Assembly (NCBI GenBank): GCA_003021505.1
Contig: PXPT01000051.1
Span: 32,640-74,230, forward strand
DNA length: 41,591 nt
Direction: 5' to 3'
DNA from: Cyanobacteria bacterium QS_4_48_99
GTDB taxonomy: Bacteria; Cyanobacteriota; Cyanobacteriia; Cyanobacteriales; Rubidibacteraceae
Part shown: positions 11,006-32,267 of the stretch, one piece after another
Layout of the letters: every line of letters begins with the position of its first letter
How positions within the stretch are numbered: the first letter of the stretch is position 1
Translations under genes and position numbers: made by a program
Notes under the pieces: model-generated
Told to the model about the DNA's origin: nothing
Database searches by the model: none
Seen by the model: the letters and a program-made list of their open reading frames with translations, nothing else

Positions 11006-14089
<3,084 letters not shown>

Positions 14090-15268
14090 ATGAGTGAAAT
14101 TCGGGCTGCCGTGCAACGGCTTTATGATACCTATCCTTTCCCCCCAGAGCCACTTTTGGATGCTCCTCCTCCAGGATACAACTGGCGCTGGAATTGGCTT
14201 GCTGCCTATAATTTTTGTACGGGGCAAAAACCGCCAAAGCAGGATATTCGGATTCTCGATGCCGGTTGCGGCACCGGGATAGGAACAGAATACCTAGCTC
14301 ATCTCAATCCCGAAGCTGATGTGGTTGGGATCGATCTCAGCGAGAAAGCATTAGGGGTGGCACGAGAGCGTTGCCGCCGTTCTGGAGCGAATCGGGTTGC
14401 TTTTCATCAGCTTAATCTAGAGGAGGTAGAGCAACTCCCAGCTCAATTTGATTTGATTAACTGCGTGGGTGTTCTACATCACTTGCCCAATCCCATGCAG
14501 GGGATTCAGTCTCTAGCAGCCCAGTTAGCCCCCGGTGGTTTGATGCATGTGTTTGTCTATGCCGAGTTGGGGCGCTGGGAAATTCGGCTAATGCAGGAAG
14601 CGATCGCGCTGTTGCAAGATCAGGAGGATTACCGTGAGGGAGTCAAACTCGGTCGTGAGCTTTTTGAGACTTTGCCAGAAAACAACCGCTTGGTGAAGCG
14701 CGAAAGAGAGCGTTGGTCCCTGGACAATCAGCGGGATGAGTGCTTTGCCGATATGTACCTCCATCCCCAAGAGATTGATTTCAATCTCGAAACGCTGTTT
14801 GAGCTAATTGATGCCTCGGGATTAGAGTTTGTAGGATTTTCCAACCCTCAGTTTTGGCAGCTTGAACGACTGCTAGGGAAAGCCCCGCAGTTGCTAGAGA
14901 GAGCAAAAGACTTACCAGAGCGCGATCGCTACCGCCTCATCGAACGACTCGATCCAGATATGGCACATTACGAATTCTTCCTGGCACGCCCGCCTCTCAC
15001 CCAAGCCGATTGGTCAAGCGACAAAGCACTTTTGGCAGCCATTCCCGAACGCCATCCCTGTATAGAGGGTTGGCCCAGCCGTAGTCTGTTTAACTACGAT
15101 TACCAGATTGTCAATCTATCGGAATCGGAGTTTGAGTTTCTCCAAGCCTGCGATGCGAACCCCGCTCGTGGTGCGAATGTGCAAGACATTCTGGCAGAGG
15201 TTTCGCTAAATTTAGAGAGAGTGCGTGCGCTCTTAGACCAGCAGCTAATTATCCTCACTCCCGCGTAG
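14090..15268 (+). CDS. Class I SAM-dependent methyltransferase
   Basis: A 392-residue protein. Motif I is ILDAGCGTGIGTEYL at residues 55-69, followed by the acidic ribose-binding strand DVVGIDLSEKAL and motif IV-like FDLINCVGVLHHLPNP; LAPGGLMHVFVY completes the Rossmann core by about residue 165. The N-terminal YDTYPFPPEPLL segment and the approximately 120-residue C-terminal tail with a possible winged-helix (FEFLQACDANPARGANVQDIL) go beyond the minimal fold. The substrate is unknown. It lies directly upstream of the ATP synthase operon on the same strand, but a possible terminator separates them. Confidence 0.85.
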   Translation: MSEIRAAVQRLYDTYPFPPEPLLDAPPPGYNWRWNWLAAYNFCTGQKPPKQDIRILDAGCGTGIGTEYLAHLNPEADVVGIDLSEKALGVARERCRRSGANRVAFHQLNLEEVEQLPAQFDLINCVGVLHHLPNPMQGIQSLAAQLAPGGLMHVFVYAELGRWEIRLMQEAIALLQDQEDYREGVKLGRELFETLPENNRLVKRERERWSLDNQRDECFADMYLHPQEIDFNLETLFELIDASGLEFVGFSNPQFWQLERLLGKAPQLLERAKDLPERDRYRLIERLDPDMAHYEFFLARPPLTQADWSSDKALLAAIPERHPCIEGWPSRSLFNYDYQIVNLSESEFEFLQACDANPARGANVQDILAEVSLNLERVRALLDQQLIILTPA

Positions 15269-15287
15269 GGAACCGAGAGAATAGATG

Positions 15288-15307
15288 AACGGTTTGTCCG
15301 TTTTTTT
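15288..15307 (+). terminator. Short possible terminator after the methyltransferase gene
   Basis: AACGG, loop TTTGT, CCGTT followed by five more T. The stem is only 5 bp, so the call is moderate. It would separate the methyltransferase from the atp operon. Confidence 0.5.
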
Positions 15308-15456
15308 AGAAACGTTTAAATATTGTTATTGTCCCGTGATATCATTGCTGCTGGCTCGTTTGAGTTGAGTCGCAGATTACTCCCTTAGTAAGACTGCCGA
15401 ACTCGGCACGCGACCGTTGGTCATAAATCGACAAGCAAGCCTAAATCCGAAGTATC

Positions 15457-26948: not shown

Positions 26949-27558
26949 AATTAACTCCCACTTAACAAACGCTGGGCAATGTCATTTGCTTTCTATATTA
27001 CGGTTTTCTTATTCCAATCTAGGAGTCCCCACAAATCAAGCCAGGCTCCCTAAATTGAGTAGCGGTTTTCTGGAATGTTCTCTTTAGTTCTCTCTACTTC
27101 TAACCTAAATTATTTAGCTCAATTACTGATATTGTGATTGTTCTTTTACTGACCCGAATCGTTTTTGATTGAGGAGAGCAAGGTTTGATACGCCTCCTCT
27201 AGTATAACCTTGGTACTAAGATTTTACTAGATATCGTAGAACGTTTGGCTGGGAAACAGTTAGGCTGAAGACAGCTTATTTCTCTCTAGATGCAGTTCGA
27301 GGAGTTTTTCGCTGCCATGTTCAAAGGTACAGAGTGCTGCCCAACCCAACCAAACAATCAATAAAATTTGAAAAATTTTCCGATGATAAAAATCGACACT
27401 AAAATCTTGCAATGTCTGCGCCAGCGTCCTGACAGAGCGACTACCACCCCCTAGGGAAGACAACTAAAATTTCATTAAGCCCGGTTAAAGCTTGACAACT
27501 AAGACCGGAAAAAAATTCCACTGACTCCGTAAAGCGAGCAAATAGGCAAGGAGGAATT
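26949..27558. other. Long intergenic region upstream of the nucleotidyltransferase fusion
   Basis: About 610 nt with promoters expected for both flanking genes. A minus-strand frame at 27260-27463 has only a TTG start, an immediate upstream stop and no ribosome site, so I do not call it. CGGTTTTCT occurs at 27001 and 27063. No tRNA or strong hairpin is seen. Confidence 0.35.
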
Positions 27559-30087
27559 ATGCGCGCCGTACTGATGGCTGGTGGTTCTGGAACCAGGCTG
27601 CGACCCTTAACCTGCGATTTACCCAAACCGATGGTGCCGGTTCTGAACCGACCCATTGCAGAACACATTATCAACCTGCTCAAGCGACACAACATCAACG
27701 AGGTTGTCGCTACGCTGCACTATCTCCCTGATGTGATGCGAGATTACTTTCAAGATGGCAGCAATTTTGGCATCGAGATGACGTACGCCGTCGAGGAAGA
27801 CCAACCCTTAGGCACGGCGGGCTGCGTAAAGAATGTTGCTGAGTTACTCGATGAAACCTTTATCGTAATTAGCGGCGACAGTATCACAGACTTCGATTTA
27901 AGCGCTGCGATTGAGTTTCACAAACAAAAGCAATCAAAAGCTACGCTTGTCTTAACCCGCGTTCCCGATCCCATGGAATTCGGAGTAGTAATTACGGACC
28001 AAGAGAATCACATCAAACGCTTTTTAGAAAAACCTTCTAGTAGCGAGATCTTCTCCGATACGATTAATACTGGTACTTATATTCTCGAACCGGAAGTTTT
28101 AGACTACCTTCCCACCAATCAGGAATGTGACTTCTCCAAAGATTTGTTTCCCCTGCTGCTAGAGCGCGGAGAGCCTATTTACGGCTATATTGCGGAGGGA
28201 TATTGGTGTGATGTGGGGCACCTCGATGCCTACCGCGAAGCACACTACGATAGCTTGAATGGGAAGGTCGAAATCGAGTGCGCCTACCAAGAACAATCTC
28301 CCGGTATCTGGGTGGGCGAAAACACCTCCATCGACCCCAGTGCCCAGATTCAGAGACCAGCACTCATTGGTAGCAACTGCCGCATTGGCTCGCGAGTCAA
28401 AATTAATTCGGGTGCGGTGATTGGCGATAACGTCACCGTTAGTGCAGAAGCGGACTTAAAGCATTCAGTGATCTGGAACGGAGCCATGATTGGCGAGCAA
28501 GCTAATCTAAGTGCCTGTACCATTTCCCGAGGCACTCGTGTAGAGCACCATGCTCAGATTTTAGAAGGAGCGGTTATCGGTGCCCTTTCCACAGTCGGGG
28601 AAGAAGCAAAAATTAGCCCCAATGTGCGCGTTTGGCCCAGTAAAAAGATTGAATCGGGCGCAGTTTTAAATATCAATTTAATTTGGGGCAACATGGCGCA
28701 ACGCAATCTCTTTGGTCAACAAGGCGTGACGGGAATCGCTAACATCGATATCACGCCAGAATTTGCAGTCAAACTAGGAACTGCATTTGGCTCGACCTTA
28801 AAACCGGGTTCTGCGGTTTCTGTCTCGCGCGACCAACGTAGTGTTTCACGCATGGTGAGTCGCTCTTTAATTTCGGGGTTGATGTCTGCGGGAGTGGAGA
28901 TTCAAAACCTAGAAGCAACGGCAATTCCCATCGCTCGCACCATGGCTCCCACACTTTCGGTTGCTGGAGGTATCCACGTGCGGCTGCATCCCAACCGCCC
29001 CGACCACTTGCTAATCGAGTTCTTCGACGAGCAGGGCATCAATATTTCCAAGTCCAAAGAAAAGAAAATTGAGGGGGCTTATTTTAAAGAAGACCTGCGG
29101 CGGGTACAGATTCCCGAAATCGGTCAGGTGTCTTATCCCAGCGGCATCCTTGAGGTTTATAGCCATAGTTTTGAGAAAAACCTGAATGTAGAAGCGGTTC
29201 GTAACAGTCGCTCCAAGGTAGTGATTGACTATGCTTACGGTGTTTCTGGAGCGGTTTTGCCTCAGCTACTCGGAAAGTTTGGTTGTGATGCGGTGGTGCT
29301 GAATGCCAGCTTGAGTCAAGCCTCGCTTTCGGCAGAAGAACGGGAAACCTTACTCAATCAACTTGGTCAGGTGGTCGAAGCTCTCAAGGCGAACCTAGGC
29401 ATACAGGTGGCAGCGAATGGAGAGCAGCTCATCTTAATGGATGAATCGGGGATGCCAATCCGCGGTGAGCAACTGACAGCACTGATGGTGAACATGATGT
29501 TCACTGCTCACCCAAGAGGCACAGTAGTGGTTCCGGTTCATGCCTCCAGTGCGGTGGAGCAAATAGCTCGACGCCACGATGGAAAGGTGATTCGGACTAA
29601 GGCGAGTCCCATGGCTTTGATGGAAGCGTCTCAGGAGAATTCCAACGTGGTGTTAGGCGGCAGTGGTGAAATGGGCTTTATTTTCCCGCAACTGCATCCC
29701 GGCTTTGATGCGATGTTTACGATCGCCAAGCTGATTGAGATGCTGACAGTACAGGAGCGATCGCTTGCCCAAATCCGCACTGAACTGCCACGGATTAGCC
29801 ACAAATCCTACACTATGCGCTGCCCTTGGGATGTGAAGGGAGGATTGATGCGCTATCTGGTAGAAACCCACCCCTCTGAAAAGCTGGAGTTAATTGATGG
29901 GGTGAAGGTAATGGAGTCGCAAAATGATAACTGGGTGTTGATCTTACCTGATGCGGGAGAGCCACTTGTGCATATTTTTGCTAACGGTAAAGATCGGGAT
30001 GGGGTGGATGAATCCCTGCGCGAATATCGTCAGTGCGTCCAAGCGTTTATAGACCAAGAAGAGGGCGTGGAAGCCGTTAACGTCTAA
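27559..30087 (+). CDS. Sugar-phosphate nucleotidyltransferase fused to a degenerate phosphomannomutase
   Basis: An 842-residue fusion. Residues 1-240 are a nucleotidyltransferase like mannose-1-phosphate guanylyltransferase, with GGSGTRLRPLT at 8-18, KP at 23-24 and VISGDS at 103-108. Residues 250-370 are left-handed beta-helix hexapeptide repeats. Residues 385-842 have the four-domain phosphohexomutase layout, but the catalytic loop TASHNP is replaced by GGIHVRLHPNRP (470-481), the metal loop DGDxDR by AANGEQ (618-623), the sugar loop GExSGH by GGSGEMGF (700-707), and the phosphate loop RxSGTEP by LPDAGEP (796-802). The mutase half is therefore probably inactive and may bind ligand or regulate. 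Likely role: NDP-sugar supply for cell-surface glycans. An AAGGAGGAATT lies before the ATG. Confidence 0.88.
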   Translation: MRAVLMAGGSGTRLRPLTCDLPKPMVPVLNRPIAEHIINLLKRHNINEVVATLHYLPDVMRDYFQDGSNFGIEMTYAVEEDQPLGTAGCVKNVAELLDETFIVISGDSITDFDLSAAIEFHKQKQSKATLVLTRVPDPMEFGVVITDQENHIKRFLEKPSSSEIFSDTINTGTYILEPEVLDYLPTNQECDFSKDLFPLLLERGEPIYGYIAEGYWCDVGHLDAYREAHYDSLNGKVEIECAYQEQSPGIWVGENTSIDPSAQIQRPALIGSNCRIGSRVKINSGAVIGDNVTVSAEADLKHSVIWNGAMIGEQANLSACTISRGTRVEHHAQILEGAVIGALSTVGEEAKISPNVRVWPSKKIESGAVLNINLIWGNMAQRNLFGQQGVTGIANIDITPEFAVKLGTAFGSTLKPGSAVSVSRDQRSVSRMVSRSLISGLMSAGVEIQNLEATAIPIARTMAPTLSVAGGIHVRLHPNRPDHLLIEFFDEQGINISKSKEKKIEGAYFKEDLRRVQIPEIGQVSYPSGILEVYSHSFEKNLNVEAVRNSRSKVVIDYAYGVSGAVLPQLLGKFGCDAVVLNASLSQASLSAEERETLLNQLGQVVEALKANLGIQVAANGEQLILMDESGMPIRGEQLTALMVNMMFTAHPRGTVVVPVHASSAVEQIARRHDGKVIRTKASPMALMEASQENSNVVLGGSGEMGFIFPQLHPGFDAMFTIAKLIEMLTVQERSLAQIRTELPRISHKSYTMRCPWDVKGGLMRYLVETHPSEKLELIDGVKVMESQNDNWVLILPDAGEPLVHIFANGKDRDGVDESLREYRQCVQAFIDQEEGVEAVNV

Positions 30088-30296: not shown

Positions 30297-30782
30297 ATGA
30301 ATAGCTGCATTATAATGGCTCAGATTGTTCGCAGTCCGGAACTGCGTTATACACAAGATAATCAAACTCCCCTAGCTGAGATGCTGGTAGAATTTGAAGC
30401 TCTGCGAGCTGACGACCCACCAGTTACCTTGAAAGTAGTCGGTTGGGGGAATTTGGCTTCAGAAATTCAGCAAACCTACAGCGTCGGCGATCGCGTGGTT
30501 ATTGAGGGTCGCTTGCGGATGAACACTGTTGACCGAACGGAGGGATTCAAAGAAAAACGGGCAGAACTGACAGCTTCCCGTGTCCATAAGCTGGATGGCG
30601 AAGCTCATCGTTCCTCCCACTCTCCTACCGCATCTACCGAAATTCCGAGTAACGTTGCCTCCTTTAATTCCTCCGAGCCAGCCACATCTGAGTCAGACAA
30701 TGCTGATCTAGAAGAACCAGTTGGCTCTCAGGCAGGGGAATCTGCTCAAACAGATAAGAATTTAGATGACATCCCTTTTTAA
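30297..30782 (+). CDS. ssb: Single-stranded DNA-binding protein (SSB-like)
   Basis: From ATG 30297 the protein is 161 residues: an OB-fold domain (MNSCIIMAQIVRSPELRYTQDNQTPLAEMLVEF... VVGWGNLASEIQQTYSVGDRVVIEGRL) and then an acidic, Ser-rich disordered tail ending LDDIPF, the conserved tip that binds SSB partner proteins. An AGGAG lies 9 nt upstream of ATG 30297. The frame is open back to 30117, but that upstream part covers a repeat and is not SSB-like. The domain is shorter and more divergent than main SSB, so this may be a second paralogue. Confidence 0.82.
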   Translation: MNSCIIMAQIVRSPELRYTQDNQTPLAEMLVEFEALRADDPPVTLKVVGWGNLASEIQQTYSVGDRVVIEGRLRMNTVDRTEGFKEKRAELTASRVHKLDGEAHRSSHSPTASTEIPSNVASFNSSEPATSESDNADLEEPVGSQAGESAQTDKNLDDIPF

Positions 30783-30911: not shown

Positions 30912-32267
30912 TTAATCACGAATTCCTACTAGAGTAGTTGCGTTTGCTTGAAATCCAGTAGCATTGAGATGCTCGACGGCTGCGCGATAGTCCTGTACCC
31001 AAAATTTCGATCCAAAACGCACAAATTGACGCTGCTCTCCGGTAGAAATCATTCCTACTACTGGCACTTTTGCGCGATTTTTGTCTCCCGATTGGTCTTG
31101 CAAAATTCCTTGAAGCCTCTTTTGCTCGGAACTATTGGCAGCTTGCTGGGGAGTTAACTCCACCATAACCATTCGTACCTTTTCTATTGGTTCCGCATCC
31201 TCTACGATCAGTTGCAGTTTATCGTCTCGTTGCTCCACCTTTCCCCAAACAATTAAACGAGCATCTTCTTCTAAGAATGAACCTATCTGTTCATAAGTTT
31301 TGGGAAAGACAACTCCCTCGGTTTGACCCGATAAGTCTTCCATCTGCACAAATGCCATGCGATCGCCGTTTTTGGTAAGAATTGTTTTCGCAGCGCTGAG
31401 GATAACAATTGCACTGACATTCGCCTTCAGCCGTTGTTGGGAAAGATCGCTCAGGCTAATTGGAGACAGAACTGTAGCAGCTTGCTGCGCCGATTTCAGT
31501 GGATGCTCTGAAACATAGAAACCCAAGAGTTCCTTTTCTTGCTTGAGCTTCTCCGACGAGGAAAAATCCTCAACTGGTTTCGCTTTGGGAGCATGCTCAA
31601 AACCTGTACCGCGATCACTTCCTTGGGAGCTACTGCTACTCATGGCATCAAAAATACTAATCTGACCGCTATCTCTGTCTCTAGCACGGCTTTGTGCCCA
31701 ACTCAGGATAAGATCGAGGTCGTGGATTAACTGCTTGCGATTCGACTCCATGCAATCAAATGCCCCGCAGTAGATCAGCGATTCTAAAGCGCGGCGGTTA
31801 ACCAGATGCAAATCGACACGAGCGCACAAATCTGCCAATGCCTGAAACTTTCCTCCCGCCTCTTGTCTGGCATGTAAAATATTCTCAATCGCTCCTTGTC
31901 CGACATTGCGTACCGCTGACAAGCCAAAGACAATTTTCTCCCCCGCTGGCGTAAAATTTTCTTCGGAGCGATTGATATCCGGTGGTTCCACATCGATGTT
32001 CATTTTTTGACAAGTATCGATGTATTTTTCCACCTTGTCTGTGTTGCTACTGCTCGCTGTCAGCAACGCCGCCATATATTCCACCGGATAATTGGCTTTT
32101 AAATATGCGGTTTGATAGGTGAGGTACGCATATGCTGTCGAGTGAGATTTATTAAAGCAATTGGAAGCAACAGAACCATTTGCTAAGACGAAATTATGGT
32201 CTTGCTCCACCCCAATGTCGTAGACTGCCTGAGTGCCCAAGGATTTGCGATGGGTAATTTTAACCAT
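30912..32267 (-). CDS. dnaE: DNA polymerase III alpha subunit, C-terminal half, with split-intein IntC
   Basis: A 451-residue trans-splicing half of DnaE. Residues 1-36 are the C-intein: block F VYDIGVEQDHNF (15-26) and block G NGSVASN (30-36) ending in the N36 needed for cleavage. C37 of CFNKSHSTAYAYLTYQTAYLK is the nucleophile and the first extein residue. The 415-residue extein holds the end of the polymerase fingers, the helix-hairpin-helix region (IVFGLSAVRNVGQGAIENIL) and the OB domain near VSAIVILSAAKTILTKNGDRMAF. The N-terminal half with IntN must be encoded elsewhere, as in other cyanobacteria. ATG 32267 follows a GGGAG site. The stop is convergent with the SSB-like gene. Confidence 0.95.
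   Translation of the reverse strand: MVKITHRKSLGTQAVYDIGVEQDHNFVLANGSVASNCFNKSHSTAYAYLTYQTAYLKANYPVEYMAALLTASSSNTDKVEKYIDTCQKMNIDVEPPDINRSEENFTPAGEKIVFGLSAVRNVGQGAIENILHARQEAGGKFQALADLCARVDLHLVNRRALESLIYCGAFDCMESNRKQLIHDLDLILSWAQSRARDRDSGQISIFDAMSSSSSQGSDRGTGFEHAPKAKPVEDFSSSEKLKQEKELLGFYVSEHPLKSAQQAATVLSPISLSDLSQQRLKANVSAIVILSAAKTILTKNGDRMAFVQMEDLSGQTEGVVFPKTYEQIGSFLEEDARLIVWGKVEQRDDKLQLIVEDAEPIEKVRMVMVELTPQQAANSSEQKRLQGILQDQSGDKNRAKVPVVGMISTGEQRQFVRFGSKFWVQDYRAAVEHLNATGFQANATTLVGIRD
32160..32267 (-). other. DnaE split intein C-fragment (IntC)
   Basis: Codes for 36 residues that match the Npu/Ssp DnaE IntC layout in length and motifs. The splice junction N36/C37 falls between 32160 and 32159. 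Extein residues after the junction are CFN, the context favoured by this family for fast splicing. Confidence 0.93.

What the first reader, a model, noticed from the sequence alone, without database searches (positions are those of the whole stretch)
27559..30087. Nucleotidyltransferase fused to a phosphomannomutase that has lost all four active-site motifs
The C-terminal half keeps the length and order of a phosphohexomutase, but the serine loop (470-481), metal loop (618-623), sugar loop (700-707) and phosphate loop (796-802) are all non-canonical. A conserved but inactive mutase domain on an NDP-sugar synthase could be a sugar-phosphate sensor that regulates the N-terminal enzyme.
Basis: partly seen in the sequence, partly recalled or inferred. 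Interest (0 to 1): 0.6.

Follow-up and report, generated by a model that had tools for sequence, protein, structure and literature searches.

The report
Sugar-nucleotide synthase with ancient pseudo-mutase domain
A bacterial enzyme predicted to make an activated sugar carries a second half that looks like a sugar-phosphate mutase but has lost every catalytic residue, and that "dead" half has been preserved as strictly as the working half across at least four bacterial phyla, which suggests a second, probably regulatory, job.

Summary
The 842-aa ORF (27559-30087, +) is an intact nucleotidyltransferase (NTase), a left-handed beta-helix (LbH) and a phosphohexomutase-fold domain lacking all four mutase motifs. 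All 114 distinct fusion sequences compared (photosynthetic and non-photosynthetic Cyanobacteriota, Armatimonadota, Actinomycetota, one Campylobacterota) lack them too. The 31 live mutases compared, including the three other mutases of this genome, keep them. The dead domains form one clade (100/100). The domain is not decaying: median dN/dS is 0.036 against 0.034 for the NTase. Several replacements are themselves conserved (catalytic Lys to Glu487, metal Asp to Glu622, phosphate-loop Arg-x-Ser to Leu-Pro-Asp), and new arginines are near-invariant (R431, R460, R475, R515, R765). AlphaFold gives a confident mutase fold. I infer a live NDP-sugar pyrophosphorylase with a pseudo-mutase regulatory module. 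The "sugar-phosphate sensor" idea is only partly supported: phosphate-binding residues were replaced by acidic ones, and the ligand is unknown. The usual name, mannose-1-phosphate guanyltransferase, is doubtful, because sampled photosynthetic cyanobacteria also carry a separate ManC-like protein. Some Armatimonadota hold a mirror-image fusion (dead NTase, live mutase), always beside this one. New variant of a known kind.

The parts
27549..27554 (+). Shine-Dalgarno sequence AGGAGG, 4 nt before the ATG
   Evidence: sequence read
27559..30087 (+). fusion ORF, 842 aa: NTase - LbH - pseudo-mutase
27559..28263 (+). residues 1-235, nucleotidyltransferase domain; signature GGSGTRLRPLT..PKP, SGDS, FLEKP, WCDVG intact
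   Evidence: PF00483 3.2e-59; invariant in alignments
28264..28692 (+). residues 236-378, left-handed beta-helix (hexapeptide) domain
   Evidence: PF25084/PF00132
28705..30048 (+). residues 383-830, phosphohexomutase-fold domain without a catalytic site
   Evidence: PF02878/79/80; AlphaFold pLDDT 89.7; Foldseek best 9du5 and 1wqa
28849..28851 (+). R431, gained near-invariant Arg (61/62; not Arg in live mutases)
28936..28938 (+). R460, gained invariant Arg (62/62)
28981..28998 (+). residues 475-480 RLHPNR in place of TASHNP; R475 in 57/62; catalytic Ser position (477) variable
29017..29019 (+). E487 in place of the catalytic Lys (E in 56/62 fusions, K in 31/31 live mutases)
29410..29427 (+). 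residues 618-623 AANGEQ in place of metal loop DGDADR; E622 conserved in 60/62
29656..29676 (+). residues 700-706 GGSGEMG in place of sugar loop GGExSG(G/H)
29944..29964 (+). residues 796-802 LPDAGEP in place of phosphate loop RxSGTEP; P797 62/62, D798 61/62

Best explanation
The protein is an NDP-sugar pyrophosphorylase whose N-terminal domain is catalytically competent, judged from intact motifs. Its sugar and nucleotide are not established; GDP-mannose is the database guess. The beta-helix most likely mediates assembly, as in related pyrophosphorylases. The C-terminal domain is a mutase-derived pseudoenzyme that lost catalysis once, before the sampled lineages separated. Its central cleft was re-tooled rather than left to decay. 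I infer that it binds a ligand, or takes an inter-domain position, that adjusts the output of the NTase, in the way non-catalytic GMPPA tunes GMPPB. Shown: the fusion, the loss in all sampled members, single ancestry, strong constraint, conserved substitutions, the fold. Inferred: NTase activity, regulation. Unknown: the ligand.
For: All catalytic residues universal in 31 live mutases are lost or switched in 62 non-redundant fusions, and five switches are conserved (E487, E622, L796, D798, H805). Zero motif matches in 114 fusions. Pseudo-mutase clade 100/100. dN/dS medians NTase 0.034, LbH 0.067, mutase 0.036 over 23-24 pairs. Confident mutase fold, pLDDT 89.7, TM 0.87-0.90 to 9du5/1wqa. Gained Arg/Asn at the strand C-ends of domain I (N395, R424, R431, R460, R475), the edge that faces the cleft in this fold (established knowledge). 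No pseudo-mutase was found outside a fusion except on contig edges. NTase motifs invariant. Three live mutases elsewhere in the same genome, so mutase activity need not come from here. Precedent: GMPPA, catalytically inactive, binds GDP-mannose and inhibits GMPPB (PMC11228364; PMC9168903).
Against: No biochemistry exists for this family in the papers found. No ligand pocket was measured. The full-length model was poor (pLDDT 55), so the domain arrangement and any contact with the NTase are unknown. Strong constraint would also fit a purely structural or partner-docking domain, or a new enzymatic activity. The Campylobacterota member is very divergent (26% over the mutase half).
Confidence: 0.55

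Rival explanations
1. The pseudo-mutase is a scaffold: it sets the oligomeric state or docks a partner, for example a live mutase for substrate hand-over, and binds no small ligand.
For: The LbH-containing relatives assemble into large oligomers (PMC9168903). B. subtilis GlmM acts non-catalytically by binding CdaA (structures 7olh/7ojs among the fold hits). Several gained invariants (R515, R765, K760, P744) are not in the cleft loops. Mirror-image fusion B, with a live mutase, was found only in genomes that also hold fusion A (7 of 7).
Against: The replaced catalytic loops are themselves conserved (E622, L796-P797-D798, E487) and new Arg gather at the cleft-facing ends of domain I, which pure scaffolding would not require. 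Live mutases in cyanobacteria are encoded elsewhere.
Confidence: 0.25
2. The domain has a new catalytic activity built on the old cleft (for example a hydrolase or lyase acting on a sugar phosphate or nucleotide sugar).
For: A new set of conserved acids and bases (E487, E622, D798, R431, R460, R475) replaces the old set. Constraint equals that of the NTase.
Against: No conserved nucleophile at the serine position (477 varies: H, S, D, A). The acidic metal cluster is incomplete in cyanobacteria. No precedent known to me.
Confidence: 0.1
3. The domain still is a mutase that uses a non-canonical site, i.e. the protein is truly bifunctional as databases and the Streptomyces literature suggest.
For: S. 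coelicolor SCO1388, the same domain order by description, is said to appear bifunctional GMP/PMM (PMC5982138). KEGG has an orthologue entry for such fusions (K16881; its meaning is from memory, its use seen).
Against: The phosphoserine, the catalytic Lys, two or three metal Asp and the phosphate-loop Arg/Ser/Thr are all gone. SCO1388 disruption gave no phage-resistance phenotype, unlike depletion of the two characterised GMPs or the manB mutant.
Confidence: 0.04
4. Fusion with intact mutase exists and the window protein is simply a locally decayed copy.
For: Armatimonad fusion B has intact TASHNP, DGDxDR, GEESGG and RPSGTEP at the same positions.
Against: Fusion B's mutase nests in stand-alone armatimonad mutases and the window's lies in a separate 100/100 clade. 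Loss is shared by all 114 fusion-A sequences. dN/dS is low.
Confidence: 0.02

Closest known systems
Archaeal-type alpha-D-phosphohexomutases (1wqa P. horikoshii PMM/PGM, 9du5 T. kodakarensis PGM, TIGR03990 Arch_GlmM)
   Same: Fold and domain order; 28% identity; TM-score 0.87-0.90
   Different: All catalytic residues absent; always fused to an NTase; no Pfam domain IV match; score far below the Arch_GlmM cut-off (263 of 439 bits)
Mannose-1-phosphate guanylyltransferase family (NF052502 man1P_GTase_Rv, human GMPPB 7d72, Arabidopsis VTC1)
   Same: NTase signature, F(V/L)EKP, LbH domain
   Different: 272 bits against a cut-off of 440; extra pseudo-mutase; substrate untested; a separate ManC-like protein exists in the same genomes
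CugP, cyanobacterial UDP-glucose pyrophosphorylase (8x7s; Synechocystis sll1558 per PMC7401256)
   Same: Nearest characterised NTase by sequence (E 3e-72) and sister in the NTase tree
   Different: CugP is a separate 390-aa protein in this genome (L145/L200), without a mutase domain
GMPPA-GMPPB complex
   Same: A non-catalytic homologue of a pathway enzyme associated with an active NDP-sugar pyrophosphorylase; the proposed working principle
   Different: In GMPPA the dead part is an NTase paralogue in a separate chain; here it is a dead mutase in the same chain
S. coelicolor SCO1388
   Same: Described as GMP domain plus phosphomannomutase domain (PMC5982138); plasmid-borne Streptomyces relatives of 832-834 aa belong to the fusion-A clade
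PGM5/aciculin (6y8x)
   Same: A phosphoglucomutase-family protein known to me as lacking enzymatic activity
   Different: Distant eukaryotic family; not fused to an NTase; E 7.5e-11 only

Membership tests
alpha-D-phosphohexomutase enzyme | mutase fold, domains I-III | tested here: met
   Pfam I-III; AlphaFold and Foldseek
alpha-D-phosphohexomutase enzyme | phosphoserine loop with catalytic Ser and His | tested here: not met
   S to H477 (variable), H to P478 (53/62); live 31/31
alpha-D-phosphohexomutase enzyme | metal loop with three Asp | tested here: not met
   A618, N620, E622; partly acidic in Armatimonadota
alpha-D-phosphohexomutase enzyme | sugar loop GE.(S/N)G | tested here: not met
   E to S702 (S or D in most fusions)
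alpha-D-phosphohexomutase enzyme | phosphate loop RxSGTEP | tested here: not met
   LPDAGEP
alpha-D-phosphohexomutase enzyme | catalytic Lys and first Arg | tested here: not met
   K to E487, R to T391
bifunctional GMP/PMM (database annotation) | both active sites intact | tested here: not met
   mutase site absent
mannose-1-phosphate guanylyltransferase | NTase signature and EKP motif | tested here: met
   GGSGTRLRPLT..PKP, FLEKP
mannose-1-phosphate guanylyltransferase | curated NCBIfam cut-off | tested here: not met
   NF052502 272 of 440 bits
mannose-1-phosphate guanylyltransferase | activity on GTP and mannose-1-phosphate | not testable with these tools
   no assay found for this protein in the papers searched
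GMPPA-like regulatory pseudoenzyme | binds product and inhibits the active NTase | not testable with these tools
   needs binding and kinetics
GMPPA-like regulatory pseudoenzyme | dead part is an NTase paralogue | tested here: not met
   the dead part is a mutase homologue

The most novel reading that the evidence does not exclude
An undescribed class of mutase-derived allosteric domains, spread over at least four bacterial phyla, whose former active-site cleft was rebuilt around new arginines to sense a different anionic metabolite and gate an NDP-sugar synthase. In Armatimonadota it is matched by a reciprocal fusion (dead NTase, live mutase), so that the two proteins may divide catalysis and regulation between them.
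Probability: 0.3. Interest if true: 0.72.

Novelty: new variant of a known kind. Interest (0 to 1): 0.55.

Why it matters
These proteins are annotated as mannose-1-phosphate guanyltransferases or bifunctional GMP/phosphomannomutases in most cyanobacteria, so models of polysaccharide metabolism may credit them with a mutase reaction they almost certainly cannot perform and a product that is unproven. If the pseudo-mutase is an allosteric sensor, it is a long-kept control point for NDP-sugar supply (exopolysaccharide, glycolipid, cell envelope). It would also be a bacterial, single-chain counterpart of the GMPPA-GMPPB principle, directly testable with purified protein.

Tried and rejected
Full-length AlphaFold with 24 close homologues gave pLDDT 55 and pTM 0.42: not used. 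Viral-contig scans for fusion relatives found none; the mutases they did give deepened the alignment for the domain model. The hypothesis that the window copy is a local pseudogene was rejected by dN/dS and family-wide loss. The hypothesis that fusion B shows the ancestral active state was rejected by tree position. An early hand reading that shifted the metal loop by one residue (ANGEQL) was corrected: both alignments give 618-623 = AANGEQ. Gene neighbourhood gave no pathway clue: an ssb gene lies downstream in 14 of 41 loci; armatimonad neighbours are unrelated genes. No Rfam element, no tRNA, and no promoter-like site on the gene's strand. Searches for a paper on Synechocystis sll1496 (the likely orthologue, from memory) as an enzyme found none; only a substrain frameshift is listed.

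Full report
What is there. The ORF at 27559-30087 (+) encodes 842 aa and starts 4 nt after AGGAGG. Pfam finds an NTP_transferase domain (3-232), a left-handed beta-helix (about 250-352) and phosphohexomutase domains I, II and III (383-743), but not domain IV. The NTase motifs are complete (GGSGTRLRPLT..PKP, SGDS, FLEKP, WCDVG) and nearly all invariant among relatives. The mutase half aligns end to end with P. horikoshii PMM/PGM (1wqa; E 9e-61), but TASHNP reads RLHPNR, DGDADR reads AANGEQ, GE.SG reads SGEMG and RxSGTEP reads LPDAGEP.

Family-wide test. I collected 114 distinct full-length fusions from photosynthetic cyanobacteria, other classes of the same phylum, Armatimonadota, four plasmid-borne Actinomycetota and one Sulfuricurvum plasmid. 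None has any of the four motifs. As controls, the three other mutases of the window's own genome and the live mutases of the comparison set keep them. In the same phylum the fusion is in 76 of 89 sampled genomes of the window's class, by my count. It is absent from a small-genome family (f23, 1.6-3.0 Mb; by size probably the Prochlorococcus/Cyanobium group, inference) and from one further genome. In Armatimonadota, 28 of 61 sampled genomes hold it, one of them as a contig-edge fragment.

One loss, then conservation. In a tree of 68 mutase domains the fusion-A domains form one clade with 100/100 support and branch broadly by phylum. In a column comparison of 62 non-redundant fusions with 31 live mutases, every position that carries catalysis in the live enzymes has changed. 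These are the first Arg (T391), Ser (477, variable), His (P478), Lys (E487, 56/62), metal Asp 1 and 2 (618 and 620, variable), metal Asp 3 (E622, 60/62), Arg 623 (R or Q), sugar-loop Glu (702, S or D), and phosphate-loop Arg (L796, 55/62), Ser (D798, 61/62) and Thr (800, variable). New near-invariant residues appeared: N395, R424, R431, R460, R475, K503, R515, P744, K760 and R765. In the model, N395, R424, R431, R460 and R475 lie at the C-terminal ends of domain I strands or in the first turns of the following helices, the edge that faces the central cleft in this fold (fold knowledge; no coordinates were available to measure it). For 23-24 closely related pairs the median dN/dS is 0.034 (NTase), 0.067 (LbH) and 0.036 (pseudo-mutase). 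The dead domain is as constrained as the apparently live one.

Fold. An AlphaFold2 model of residues 379-842 built on 30 sequences has mean pLDDT 89.7 and pTM 0.87. Foldseek ranks T. kodakarensis PGM and P. horikoshii PMM/PGM first (TM 0.87-0.90, 28% identity). The first, full-length attempt had a shallow alignment and was unusable.

What the NTase makes. The name mannose-1-phosphate guanyltransferase is weakly founded. The best NCBIfam hit is man1P_GTase_Rv at 272 bits against a cut-off of 440. The nearest characterised NTase by sequence is CugP, a UDP-glucose pyrophosphorylase (sll1558 in PMC7401256), which is a separate gene here. The genome also holds a stand-alone ManC-like protein (TIGR01479, 306 bits, below that model's cut-off) and GDP-mannose dehydratase. 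Every sampled photosynthetic genome has such a ManC-like or full GMP_PMI protein. GDP-mannose supply therefore need not depend on the fusion.

Mechanism. The strongest reading is a live pyrophosphorylase with a pseudo-mutase regulatory module. Shown: fusion, loss, single ancestry, constraint, conserved substitutions, fold. Inferred: that the NTase is active, that the module binds something, that it acts on the NTase. A phosphosugar bound in the mutase way is disfavoured, because the phosphate-loop Arg and Ser became Leu and Asp and the catalytic Lys became Glu. A differently placed anion on the new arginines is possible. Published precedents for the principle are GMPPA, inactive, which binds GDP-mannose and inhibits GMPPB (PMC11228364, PMC9168903), and GlmM bound to the cyclase CdaA (structures). 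In Streptomyces, SCO1388 was called bifunctional from its domains. Its disruption left phage sensitivity unchanged, whereas depletion of the two characterised GMPs or mutation of manB did not (PMC5982138). Insertions in it lower actinorhodin (PMC6585502).

Mirror image. Seven of 201 sampled Armatimonadota genomes carry a second fusion (B) of the same length and order, with NTase motifs broken (GERGAPLYPLT..PRA, NGH for SGD) and mutase motifs intact. Its mutase nests in stand-alone armatimonad mutases, so it arose independently. All seven genomes also hold fusion A. Six of those fusion-A copies were checked to have an intact NTase and a dead mutase; the seventh, L210, was identified by 63% identity only because the script picked the wrong frame.

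Limits. Only one collection scan of genomes was allowed, so other phyla (Chloroflexota, Bacillota, Deinococcota) were not systematically sampled. Pocket geometry, oligomeric state and ligands were not testable. The library of papers lacks most subscription journals, so an unseen biochemical study is possible.

Noticed in passing
L143/L146 (G223), L144/L152 (G209), L147-L151 (G340, G289, G308, G345, G275): Armatimonadota 'fusion B': dead NTase (NGH for SGD, RA/RS for KP) fused to a live mutase; independent origin; in all seven genomes fusion A is present too.
   Followed up: yes
L142/L158 (G254:C31:16984-19512): The NTase (352 aa) and a live mutase (487 aa) sit adjacent and unfused on one strand, a plausible picture of the state before fusion.
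   Followed up: partly
L066 and G147:C1:1666245-1668754: In the Epithemia turgida diatom endosymbiont the fusion gene is broken (two pieces with a stop, length not a multiple of three), while sister endosymbionts keep it intact.
   Followed up: partly
L201 (G000:C4:6759-7805): Photosynthetic cyanobacteria carry a stand-alone ManC-like protein of about 360 aa that scores below the GMP_PMI cut-off, beside the fusion; smaller-genome clades without the fusion have full GMP_PMI.
   Followed up: partly
L208 (Sulfuricurvum kujiense pSULKU01), 12035-15324: The divergent fusion overlaps by 4 nt with a patatin-like phospholipase gene and follows a phospholipase A gene, hinting at a membrane or glycolipid role there.
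   Followed up: no
30315-30782 (+): Single-strand DNA-binding protein gene directly downstream; the same neighbour follows the fusion in 14 of 41 loci checked.
   Followed up: partly
30912-32267 (-): DnaE C-terminal half that starts with what looks like a split DnaE intein C-part (ending ...FVLANGSVASNCFNK), recognised from memory and not tested.
   Followed up: no
L090 and L092 (G053): One non-photosynthetic Cyanobacteriota genome carries two fusion-A copies, 93% identical; the assembly has 9% contamination, so they may be two strains.
   Followed up: no
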